From assembly GCF_002441935.1 (NCBI RefSeq), contig NZ_CP023668.1, positions 744,001 through 808,000 of the forward strand: DNA of 64,000 nt, written 5' to 3'. A model generated the notes under the pieces. It was not told where the DNA came from, did no database searches, and worked only from the letters and a program-made list of their open reading frames with translations. Made by a program: the position numbers and the translations under genes. This stretch comes from Mesoplasma lactucae ATCC 49193 (GTDB lineage Bacteria; Bacillota_I; Bacilli_A; Mycoplasmatales; Mycoplasmataceae). Below, piece after piece: positions 2,340 through 5,877 of the stretch. Numbering within the stretch: position 1 is the stretch's first letter; every line of letters begins with the position of its first letter.

Positions 2340-2936
2340 TTAAAATTCTGTTGCAGCTAATTTAATTTCTGGATCAAATTCATCAATTACTTCTTGTGGT
2401 TTCATTTTATTAAATGGTGCTGATTTTGTTCCTGACACTAGAATAGGGGTAGTTACTTTTGCACCAACAAAATCAAATGTTCCTCTTAAGTACTCTGTGT
2501 GGTTTCCTCATAGGTATCATCCATAAGGTGCTCCTTGGGTTGTTAAGATTTGAACTTTAAGATTTGGTAATAATCCTTTAGCTTCACCTTTTACACTATA
2601 TTTATATGAAAAAGTTTCATTTGCTAATAAGATATGATCTAAATAATTCTTTAACATTGCTGGAATATTAAAGTTATGCATTGGTGAAACAACAATTAAT
2701 TTATCAGTGTTTCTTAACTGATTAATTGCACCCATTGCATCTTTTCCTCAATAATCTTTTTGATTATCAACATTTAAAGTTTGTTGTGCGATTGGGAATG
2801 TATTTAAATCAATTTCTTCAATCTCATCATTTGGATGAGCTTCTTTATAATATTTTAAAAATCGATTCTTTAATTCTAAAGAATAAGAATTTTCTTCACT
2901 TGAAATTGTAGCTGTTAAGACTAAGACTTTACTCAT
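2340..2936 (-). CDS. azoR: FMN-dependent NADH-azoreductase
   Basis: A 198-residue flavodoxin-fold oxidoreductase of the AzoR/AcpD family, which reduces quinones and azo compounds with NAD(P)H and bound FMN. The N terminus (MSKVLVLTATISSEENSYS) forms the flavin phosphate-binding strand and loop. The family segment SPMHNFNIPAMLKNYLDHI sits near residues 85-103, and TTQGAPYG near 135-142 is the second FMN contact. Length is normal for the family. The gene is monocistronic, with a strong AAGGAGGG ribosome site and an extended -10 promoter upstream. It converges on the ABC permease gene through a shared terminator. The physiological substrate is unknown; a role in detoxification is an inference from the family. 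Confidence 0.9.
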
Positions 2937-3063: not shown

Positions 3064-3069
3064 TATAAT
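3064..3069 (+). promoter_or_regulatory. -10 box for the purA riboswitch transcript
   Basis: A perfect TATAAT lies about 30 bases upstream of the first helix of the riboswitch. No clear -35 hexamer is visible. The intervening region 2937-3060 shows no gene. Confidence 0.5.
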
Positions 3070-3099
3070 AAAGGTAGATAAAAATTAATAATCTTTAAG

Positions 3100-3167
3100 A
3101 AAACTTATATAATCCAACATATCGGGTTGGAGTCTCTACCTAGCACCAATGCTAGATTATGAGTTTT
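3100..3167 (+). promoter_or_regulatory. purine riboswitch aptamer, adenine type (variant loops)
   Basis: The three-way junction of the purine riboswitch family can be laid out in full. P1 is AAAACUUA (3100-3107) with UGAGUUUU (3160-3167), the J1/2 core is UAUAAUC, and P2 is CCAAC/GUUGG. J2/3 reads AGUCUCUACC, P3 is CUAGCA/UGCUAG, and J3/1 is AUUAUG. The specificity base equivalent to position 74 is U (3157), which in this family pairs with adenine. Loop L3 is only four bases (CCAA) instead of the usual seven, and L2 is AUAUCGG, but L2 still ends in GG and L3 begins with CC, so the loop-loop contact may survive. It lies in the leader of purA, the committed step to AMP. Ligand identity is inferred from the U. 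Confidence 0.85.
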
Positions 3168-3177
3168 ACAAAAACAC

Positions 3178-3258
3178 ATTAACACTTATGTAGAGTGCAT
3201 TTTTTAGGTTTTCTTATGAAACTTAGTAATGCATTTTACTTTGGGTGTTAATTTTTTT
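3178..3258 (+). terminator. riboswitch expression platform: long intrinsic terminator
   Basis: A three-tier hairpin: outer arms 3178-3185 (ATTAACAC) and 3245-3252, middle arms 3194-3201 and 3228-3235, inner arms 3206-3211 and 3219-3224. It is followed by a T-run to 3258 just before the purA ribosome site. The inner strand GAAACUUA (3218-3225) can instead pair with the P1 3' strand UGAGUUUU (3160-3167), giving an antiterminator. Ligand-stabilised P1 would then favour termination, an OFF switch. The pairing is visible; the switching logic is inference. Confidence 0.65.
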
Positions 3259-3277: not shown

Positions 3278-4582
3278 ATGCTAAATAGTAGAGATTATAA
3301 GACTCTTGTTGTGGTTGGTTCACAATGAGGTGATGAAGGAAAAGGGAAAATTACTGACTTTTACGCGCAAGATGCAGACTTAGTTGTTCGTTTTGCTGGT
3401 GGAGATAATGCTGGTCACGTAATTTGAAATGAAGGTAAAAAATATAAAGTAACAATTGTACCTTCAGGAATCTTAAACCCCAAAGTTATGAACGTAATTG
3501 GAAACGGTTGTGTTGTTAACTTAAATAAATTAAATGATGAAATGGCTATCTTAAACAAAGCTGGAGTTGATACAAAAAACCTATTTGTATCAGATAGAGC
3601 TCACGTTATTTTTAAATACAATGAAGTAATTGATGAATTACAAGAAGAACAAAGACAAAATAGAAAAATCGGAACTACAAAAAGAGGAATTGGTCCAACT
3701 TATGCTGATAAAGCATCACGTTGTGGAATCAGAATCTGTGATTTTGCAGAACCTAATTTCAAAGACTTATTAGAAGAACAAGTTGAATACCACAATAAAT
3801 TAATTACAGATATTTATGGTGGACAACCATTAGACTTCAACACCATCTATGAAGATGCATTAAAACAATATGCAAACATTAAAGATAGAATTGTTGATTC
3901 TGGAAGCTATGTAAACCAAGCAATTAGAGATAATAAATTCGTTTTATTTGAAGGAGCACAAGGAGTTCTTTTAGATATCGATCATGGAACTTATCCATTT
4001 GTAACAAGTTCAAATACAACTGCAAACAACGTAAGTATTGGAACAGGAATCCACAACAAACTAATTAATAAAGTTGTTGGGGTTGCTAAAGCTTATGATA
4101 CTCGTGTTGGAACTGGTGGATTCCCAACAGAATTACTAGATGCAACTGGAGATAGAATTCGTGAACGTGGTCACGAATATGGATCAAATACTGGACGTCC
4201 TCGTCGTATTGGATGATTTGATGCTGTAGCCATGAATTATTCAATTAGAACTGGTGGATTAGATGCTTTATTCATTACTTTATTAGATGTTCTTGATACA
4301 GAAGAAACTGTAAAAATTTGTACAGGTTACAAATACAATGGAAAAGTTATTGATACTATTCCAGCATCAAATACTGAATATGAAAAATGTGAACCAGTTT
4401 ATGAAGAACTACCTGGATGACAAGAAGATATTACTAAGGTGACTTCATTTGACCAATTACCTAAAAATGCTCAAAACTACATTAACAGAATTGCTGAATT
4501 ATGTGATGTAGCAATCCAAGGTTTCTCAGTTGGACCAGACCGTCATCAAACAGTAACTATGTTAGATAAATTTGAAGGTTAA
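3278..4582 (+). CDS. purA: adenylosuccinate synthetase
   Basis: A 434-residue cytoplasmic enzyme that condenses IMP with aspartate using GTP, the first committed step to AMP. The N-terminal P-loop GSQWGDEGKGK (about residues 15-25) and FAGGDNAGH further on are diagnostic. [15 protein letters not shown] supplies the conserved IMP-binding loop, and TGRPRRIGW lies in the C-terminal half. Length is normal. The ATG is preceded by AAAGGAG at 3265-3271. The gene sits under an adenine-type riboswitch and a conditional terminator, and purB follows after two bases, so both steps from IMP to AMP are probably controlled together. Confidence 0.98.
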
Positions 4583-4584
4583 TT

Positions 4585-5877
4585 ATGATTGATAGATACG
4601 AAGTAAAAGAAATCGCTGATATCTGAGATGATGACAATAAATTAAAGATCTGAACTTTAATTGAAGAGTTAGTTGTTGAAGGTTGATCAAAAATTGGGGT
4701 AGTTCCTCAAAGCGATGTTGATGCAATTAAAAAGAACATTAAAATCGATAGACCAAGAATGTTAGAAATTGAAAAAGAAACTAAACACGATGTTGTAGCC
4801 TTTACAAGAATGTTAAGCGAATCATTAGGTGATGAACGTAAATGAATCCATTTAGGAATCACTTCAACTGATATTGTTGATACTGCTCAAAACTACATGG
4901 TTAAACAATCTTCAAAATATGTTTTAGAAGATATTAAAAAACTTGAAGAAGAATTAGATTCATTATCAAAAAAATATAAAGACACTTTAATCATGGGTAG
5001 AACTCACGGGATGTATGGAGAACCAACATCTTTAGGATTAAAATTCCTGCTATGATTAGAAGAAGTTAAAAGACAAGAAAAAAGACTACGTGCAGCCTTT
5101 GATGATGTATGTGTAACTAAAATTTCTGGGTCTATGGGTAACTATGCAAACTTAGAAATTTCTGTAGAAGAATACGTAGCTGGAAAATTAGGAATGAAAC
5201 GTGATAATCTATCTACACAAGTTTCTCAAAGAGATCGTTTAGCATCACTTTATCTAGCTATGGCTAACCTTTCTACAACTTTTGAAAAGGTTGCTACAGA
5301 AATTCGCTTGCTACAACGTAGTGAAGTTAAAGAAATCATGGAAGGTTTTAGTAAAAACCAAAAAGGTTCTTCTTCTATGCCGCATAAAAAGAATCCTATT
5401 AGTTCAGAAAACATTACTGGTTTATCAAGAATGTTAAGAGCTTATATTATTCCTGGTTTAGAAAATAACGTGCTATGACACGAAAGAGATATTTCTCATT
5501 CATCAAACGAAAGAATCATTTTACCTGACTCATTAAACTTAGTATGTTACATAGCAAGAAGATTAACAAATGTTTTAGAAAATATCGTTGTTAATGAAGA
5601 TGCAATGTTAGAACACATTAATAGTTCAAACAATATTTTCTATTCTCAACCATTAATGACATTTATTATCATGAACACAAATCACTCACGTGAAGAAGTT
5701 TATGACTTTGTTCAAAAATGTACTATGGAAGCTATGAAAGACAACAAAGACTTCAAACAAGTATTAATTGATAATGATGTTTATAAATATATTTCAAAAG
5801 AAGATTTCGATAAATTATTTAATCCAAACTACTTCTTGAGAAATGTTGATGAAATGTATAAAAAAGTAAATAATTAA
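4585..5877 (+). CDS. purB: adenylosuccinate lyase
   Basis: A 430-residue member of the fumarase/aspartase superfamily. It splits adenylosuccinate to AMP and fumarate, and in organisms with de novo synthesis also SAICAR. Visible signatures are LGITSTDIVDT near residue 90, MGRTHG near 137-142 with the conserved catalytic His, and the superfamily signature GSSSMPHKKNP near residue 265-275 in the flexible catalytic loop. It starts two bases after the purA stop and is almost certainly in the same riboswitch-controlled transcript. No other purine biosynthesis gene is present in the window, so a salvage role (IMP to AMP) is the likely use. Confidence 0.98.

What the first reader, a model, noticed from the sequence alone, without database searches (positions are those of the whole stretch)
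3100..3258. Adenine-type riboswitch with shortened L3, probably an OFF switch, on purA-purB
The conserved purine-aptamer core is complete with U at the specificity position, but L3 has four bases instead of seven and L2 is changed, keeping only GG and CC for the loop contact. A U48-to-C-like change is also present in J2/3. The P1 3' strand can pair with GAAACUUA inside the terminator, so ligand would promote termination. Well-known adenine riboswitches (pbuE, add) turn genes on, so an OFF switch controlling AMP synthesis would be a different logic.
Basis: partly seen in the sequence, partly recalled or inferred. Interest (0 to 1): 0.72.

Follow-up and report, generated by a model that had tools for sequence, protein, structure and literature searches.

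The report
Adenine OFF riboswitch on purA-purB
In a wall-less bacterium (a Mesoplasma relative), an adenine-sensing RNA switch in front of the two genes that make AMP from IMP is built so that adenine should shut those genes off, the reverse of the well-studied adenine switches, using a folding trick already shown for a sister switch in Mesoplasma florum.

Summary
Window 3085-3179 is a purine riboswitch (Rfam RF00167, 54.6 bits) with U at the specificity position (3157), C at position 48 (3134) and a four-base L3, followed by a strong terminator (3178-3252, 0 of 200 shuffles as stable) and purA-purB. The same subtype lies before purA in five more genomes of two other genera and before a purine permease in 14 leaders. 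P2 and P3 covary, so it is a real, maintained RNA. Instead the P1 5' strand (3096-3107) pairs with a switching strand in the terminator apex (3205-3216), favoured for transcripts ending about 3213-3232; the terminator wins from about 3236. The M. florum 2'-deoxyguanosine OFF riboswitch works this way, and my method reproduces its published window. Aptamer and terminator do not overlap in any of 20 leaders, so adenine cannot block the terminator as in pbuE. The short-loop aptamer subtype was already reported from M. florum (Kim 2007, from memory); apparently new are the purA target and the adenine-OFF pairing. Adenine binding and termination are untested.

The parts
3064..3069 (+). TATAAT -10 box; transcript predicted to start near 3076
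   Evidence: sequence reading; no good -35 box; start not measured
3085..3179 (+). purine riboswitch aptamer, adenine type
   Evidence: RF00167 54.6 bits; P2/P3 covariation over 14 distinct relatives
3096..3107 (+). strand P (overlaps the P1 5' strand); pairs with A strand (ligand) or T strand (no ligand)
   Evidence: 12-bp complement to 3205-3216; ungapped complementarity reached in 1 of 400 shuffles
3100..3108 (+). P1 5' strand
3113..3131 (+). P2 (6 bp) with L2 AUAUCGG 3119-3125
3132..3139 (+). J2/3 GUCUCUAC with C48 at 3134 and U51 at 3137
3140..3155 (+). P3 (6 bp) with L3 CCAA 3146-3149
3157..3157 (+). U74-equivalent, the adenine specificity base
   Evidence: RF00167 alignment; invariant in the 20 adenine-type leaders by selection
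3159..3167 (+). strand A (P1 3' strand)
3178..3252 (+). intrinsic terminator hairpin, followed by U7 (3252-3258)
   Evidence: -29.8 kcal/mol, z -8.2
3184..3195 (+). ACUUAUGUAGAG in the terminator 5' arm; in the predicted ON fold it pairs with strand A (3159-3164) and J2/3 (3134-3139)
   Evidence: MFE of truncated transcripts; seen in this species only
3205..3216 (+). strand T (switching strand) UAGGUUUUCUUA in the terminator apex
   Evidence: pairing probability 0.96-0.98 for transcripts ending 3216-3228; 0 of 300 shuffled leaders match its advantage
3278..4582 (+). purA, adenylosuccinate synthase
   Evidence: TIGR00184 508 bits, cut-off 396
4585..5877 (+). purB, adenylosuccinate lyase, starting 2 bases after purA
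   Evidence: TIGR00928 463 bits, cut-off 326

Best explanation
A transcriptional adenine riboswitch with OFF logic controls purA-purB. Shown by sequence and comparison: an adenine-type (U74) purine aptamer, an intrinsic terminator that does not overlap it, and a switching strand T in the terminator apex complementary to the P1 5' strand. Inferred: when adenine is scarce, T captures strand P as soon as it is transcribed (transcript end about 3213-3232), P1 opens and the terminator 5' arm is held away, so polymerase reads through and AMP is made from IMP. When adenine is plentiful it binds within the roughly 50 bases after P1 is complete, holds P1 closed (P-A), T stays free for the terminator, and transcription stops before purA. 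Control is kinetic, because once the whole terminator is out it is the most stable fold either way. The logic fits salvage: the genome encodes adenine phosphoribosyltransferase, so adenine makes IMP-to-AMP conversion unnecessary.
For: RF00167 54.6 bits. Three-way junction supported by changes on both sides of pairs in P2 and P3, 95% of cells paired, falling to 36-49% when strands are slid. Same subtype before purA in six genomes of three genera and before a PF00860-type permease in 14 leaders. Terminator lies entirely 3' of P1 in all 20. All six purA leaders and 19 of 20 adenine-type leaders have a transcript length at which a P-to-downstream fold without P1 is the MFE. In the window it is 7.6-7.8 kcal/mol better than the aptamer fold, 0 of 300 shuffles reach that, and it holds at 25-37 C. 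The exact complement of the P hexamer lies downstream in all 20 leaders, expected in about 11% of shuffles each, range 2-45%. The same calculation on the M. florum 2'-dG leader gives an ON window of 109-137 nt and a terminator by 141, matching the published 113-137 and 139-144 (PMC5838219). Adenine phosphoribosyltransferase is present.
Against: No measurement of binding or termination. Folding energies ignore tertiary contacts and pseudoknots, and the ungapped P-T score in single leaders is often only modestly better than shuffles (7-20% in several permease leaders and 14% in G020 purA). P hardly varies among adenine-type leaders, so P-T covariation there is almost nil (two G-C to A-U changes). 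In genus g9 T lies in the apical part of the hairpin, so it is not certain that P-T pairing excludes the terminator. The sister species in the same genus has an eroded leader.
Confidence: 0.83

Rival explanations
1. OFF switch, but the antiterminator is the P1 3' strand (3160-3167) paired with GAAACUUA (3218-3225).
For: 8 contiguous pairs exist.
Against: About 8-21 kcal/mol worse than the best fold, probability 0.000 at every length. The partner is paired with T in the terminator and is transcribed after T.
Confidence: 0.04
2. ON switch like pbuE: adenine disrupts the terminator.
For: The characterised adenine riboswitches pbuE and add are ON switches (PMC11251524; PMC2258182).
Against: P1 ends at 3167 and the terminator starts at 3178; no overlap in any of 20 leaders. 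The aptamer-containing fold is the one that contains the terminator.
Confidence: 0.04
3. The aptamer senses another ligand (2'-deoxyadenosine, guanine or another purine) rather than adenine.
For: Core changes in a Mesoplasma relative created 2'-deoxyguanosine specificity (PMC9295807, citing Kim 2007).
Against: U22, U47, U51, A52 and U74 are all kept. Only C48 changes, a change also common in guanine-type relatives. Targets are AMP synthesis and a purine permease.
Confidence: 0.07
4. A decaying relic without function, as in the sister species G001.
For: G001's purA leader has lost J1/2, P2 and J2/3.
Against: The window copy has all core bases and all helices, and its P2/P3 pairs change together relative to other genera.
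Confidence: 0.02

Closest known systems
M. florum short-loop purine riboswitch variants (Kim, Roth and Breaker 2007; abstract recalled, paper not held)
   Same: shortened hairpin loop, altered core, adenine-type members in Mesoplasma; G021 (793,224 bp, the size I recall for M. florum L1) has a closely similar adenine-type aptamer before a permease
   Different: here the target is purA-purB; G021's purA has no such leader
M. florum 2'-deoxyguanosine (2'-dG-I) riboswitch (PMC5838219, PMC12268651)
   Same: P-A-T-H architecture: P1 5' strand pairs with strand T as antiterminator, ligand gives OFF; closely similar folding windows by the same calculation
   Different: adenine-type core (U74, U51) instead of the 2'-dG core; T lies in the apex of a longer terminator, and an extra A-strand/J2/3 pairing is predicted
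pbuE and add adenine riboswitches
   Same: U74 three-way-junction aptamer
   Different: those are ON switches; 7-nt L3 and U48; terminator or start-site sequences compete with the aptamer (structural details from memory)
xpt-pbuX guanine riboswitch
   Same: transcriptional OFF logic
   Different: C74, senses guanine; a different switching strand (from memory)

Membership tests
Purine riboswitch (RF00167) | covariance-model score above gathering threshold | tested here: met
   54.6 vs 37 bits
Purine riboswitch (RF00167) | P1-P2-P3 junction with covarying helices | tested here: met
   P2 and P3 covary, P1 itself has only one-sided changes
Purine riboswitch (RF00167) | L2-L3 GG-CC contact | tested here: met
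   both pairs possible in 13 of 14 distinct relatives; the contact itself is not shown
Adenine riboswitch | U at position 74 with U22, U47, U51 kept | tested here: met
Adenine riboswitch | selective binding of adenine | not testable with these tools
   needs in-line probing or ITC
Adenine riboswitch, pbuE-type ON platform | terminator sequence overlaps the aptamer so that ligand disrupts it | tested here: not met
   terminator starts 11 nt after P1 ends; no overlap in 20 of 20
2'-dG-I riboswitch | C74 and altered J2/3 core | tested here: not met
   U74 and GUCUCUACC here, against GACUA and GACCCCGCC in the 2'-dG leader
P-A-T-H OFF platform of the 2'-dG-I riboswitch | P1 5' strand/T strand antiterminator favoured in intermediate transcripts, terminator favoured at full length | tested here: met
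   with the 2'-dG leader as positive control

The most novel reading that the evidence does not exclude
All adenine riboswitches of this Mollicute family are OFF switches for purine uptake and AMP synthesis. In the purA leaders, antitermination works by strand capture of the terminator's apical part rather than of a basal stem arm. The aptamer cassette is copied or homogenised between permease and purA within each genome, sometimes with a switch of ligand (G020).
Probability: 0.4. Interest if true: 0.6.

Novelty: new variant of a known kind. Interest (0 to 1): 0.42.

Why it matters
It pairs an adenine-specific aptamer with the OFF platform of a sister switch, which suggests that ligand specificity and genetic logic are exchanged independently in this family. 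It also gives a gene-control explanation for AMP synthesis in near-minimal bacteria that live by purine salvage. Six natural purA versions, and a nearly identical pair with U74 and C74 in one genome, are ready-made test material.

Tried and rejected
A scan of genome contigs with the single PurA protein gave only two distant loci, so named organisms were not obtained. An attempt to forbid P1 by hard constraints also blocked P-T and was discarded. A first run of the 2'-dG control used the wrong P1 register and was redone. In one search the aptamer cores of G023 purA and G020 permease were mis-cut by a regular expression, so those identities were recounted by eye. No ON-type adenine control was found in the 392 genomes of the phylum sampled, and the 30 riboswitch loci read outside this family are not U74. 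Kim 2007 is not held, so I could not check whether its authors discussed OFF logic for the adenine-type variant. No paper found by search pairs an adenine riboswitch with purA.

Full report
What is there. The window belongs to an 837,471-base Mollicute genome (TGA read as Trp). The size recalls Mesoplasma lactucae, which is from memory and unverified. Between a divergent azoreductase gene (2340-2936, minus strand) and purA (3278-4582) lies a 340-base leader. Rfam finds one riboswitch in the whole window, RF00167 at 3085-3179 with 54.6 bits. The bases that decide ligand choice are intact: U22 3110, U47 3133, U51 3137, A52 3138 and U74 3157. The genome has two more purine riboswitches: an adenine type with nearly the same core before a PF00860 permease (L001), and a C74 type before a lipoprotein gene that resembles nucleoside-binding BMP lipoproteins (L003, my reading of the sequence).

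Relatives. In the GTDB-style family most genomes have a purine riboswitch match. I read 132 aptamers. Twenty are adenine-type (U74): six before purA (G000, G009, G016, G023, G029, G020; three genera) and fourteen before a purine permease. All 20 carry C48, so C48 and the short L3 mark the subtype, not this copy. P2 and P3 show changes on both sides of pairs; 95.3% of cells pair, against 36-49% when strands are slid. Outside this family the strict U74 pattern had no convincing match in the rest of the 392-genome sample (matches there lack the P3 stem, my reading).

Switching. The terminator 3178-3252 is exceptional (z -8.2) and does not touch the aptamer, so adenine cannot abolish it by closing P1. 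Folding growing transcripts, the aptamer is favoured up to about 3208; from about 3213 to 3232 a fold in which 3096-3107 pairs with 3205-3216 is favoured (probability 0.96-0.98 at 3216-3228); from 3236 the aptamer plus terminator wins. The middle fold is up to 7.8 kcal/mol better than the aptamer fold. Shuffling the region between P1 and the terminator 3' arm never reproduced this in 300 trials, and the result holds at 25 and 30 C. In the same fold the P1 3' strand and J2/3 pair with ACUUAUGUAGAG of the terminator 5' arm, a second lock seen only in this species.

Is that conserved? In all 20 adenine-type leaders the exact complement of the six P bases (GAAAAC; AAAAAC or AAAGAC in two) occurs downstream; shuffles contain it in 2-45% (mean about 11%) of cases each. 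It lies in the 5' arm or apex of the terminator in 19; in G010 the exact match is in the 3' arm, with a weaker one in the apex. In the wider set of non-adenine leaders 38 of 110 have P-to-downstream complementarity reached by at most 1 of 100 shuffles, with quite different sequences, so the platform looks general in these Mollicutes. Many of these leaders are close relatives, so they are not 38 independent cases. All six purA leaders show an intermediate ON window; one permease leader of 14 (G000) does not. In several permease leaders the strongest predicted partner lies after the terminator, so the purA leaders are the cleaner evidence.

Known precedent. The M. florum 2'-dG riboswitch has four segments P, A, T, H; T pairs with P as antiterminator between 113 and 137 nt, the terminator is most stable by 139-144 nt, and ligand slows the switch so that the gene is turned off (PMC5838219; PMC12268651). 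Running my calculation on that published leader gave 109-137 and 141, so the method recovers a proven case. The window's switch is therefore read as the same platform with an adenine aptamer. Characterised adenine riboswitches are ON (PMC11251524; PMC2258182).

Biology. PurA and PurB turn IMP into AMP. The genome encodes adenine phosphoribosyltransferase (TIGR01090, 200 bits). Repressing purA-purB when adenine is plentiful is the economical choice, and repressing an importer under adenine would follow the same rule. This logic is inference.

Evolution. Aptamers of purA and permease within one genome are more alike (G000 64/67, G029 67/67; G023 67/68 recounted by eye) than purA aptamers of G000 compared with other genera (55-57 of 67-68). 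That suggests copying or gene conversion of the cassette. In G020 the purA copy is U74 and the permease copy reads GCCUAUGAG (C74) with 64/68 identity (recounted by eye), a natural ligand switch between paralogs.

Limits. No binding, transcription or expression data exist here. Apex-capture antitermination in genus g9 cannot be judged by nested folding. Whether Kim 2007 already discussed OFF logic for an adenine-type M. florum variant could not be checked.

Noticed in passing
L036 (G001, same genus), about 1350-1480: The purA leader of the sister species is an eroded form of the same riboswitch: J1/2, P2, J2/3 and P3 damaged, GAUUAUGAGUU and GUUUUC kept; no Rfam hit.
   Followed up: partly
G020: L015/L048 (purA) and L072 (permease): Two nearly identical aptamers in one genome differ at the specificity bases: U74 before purA, C74 (GCCUAUGAG) before the permease.
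   Followed up: partly
purA and permease leaders of G000, G009, G016, G023, G029: Aptamer copies look homogenised within genomes while their terminators differ, suggesting gene conversion or repeated cassette copying.
   Followed up: partly
38 of 110 non-adenine Mollicute purine riboswitch leaders: Long complementarity between the region at or upstream of P1 and a downstream strand (for example UGUAAUUAAUAG with CUGUUAAUUACA): the 5'-strand antiterminator looks like the common platform of purine riboswitches in these Mollicutes.
   Followed up: partly
L003 (G000:C1:611083-611177, minus strand): Guanine-type (C74) purine riboswitch before a lipoprotein gene resembling a nucleoside-binding BMP lipoprotein in the same genome.
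   Followed up: no
L016 (G010 permease leader): The sequence upstream of P1 (UAACUAAA...AAAGAC) is complementary to the 3' arm of the terminator, a different way to the same OFF logic.
   Followed up: no
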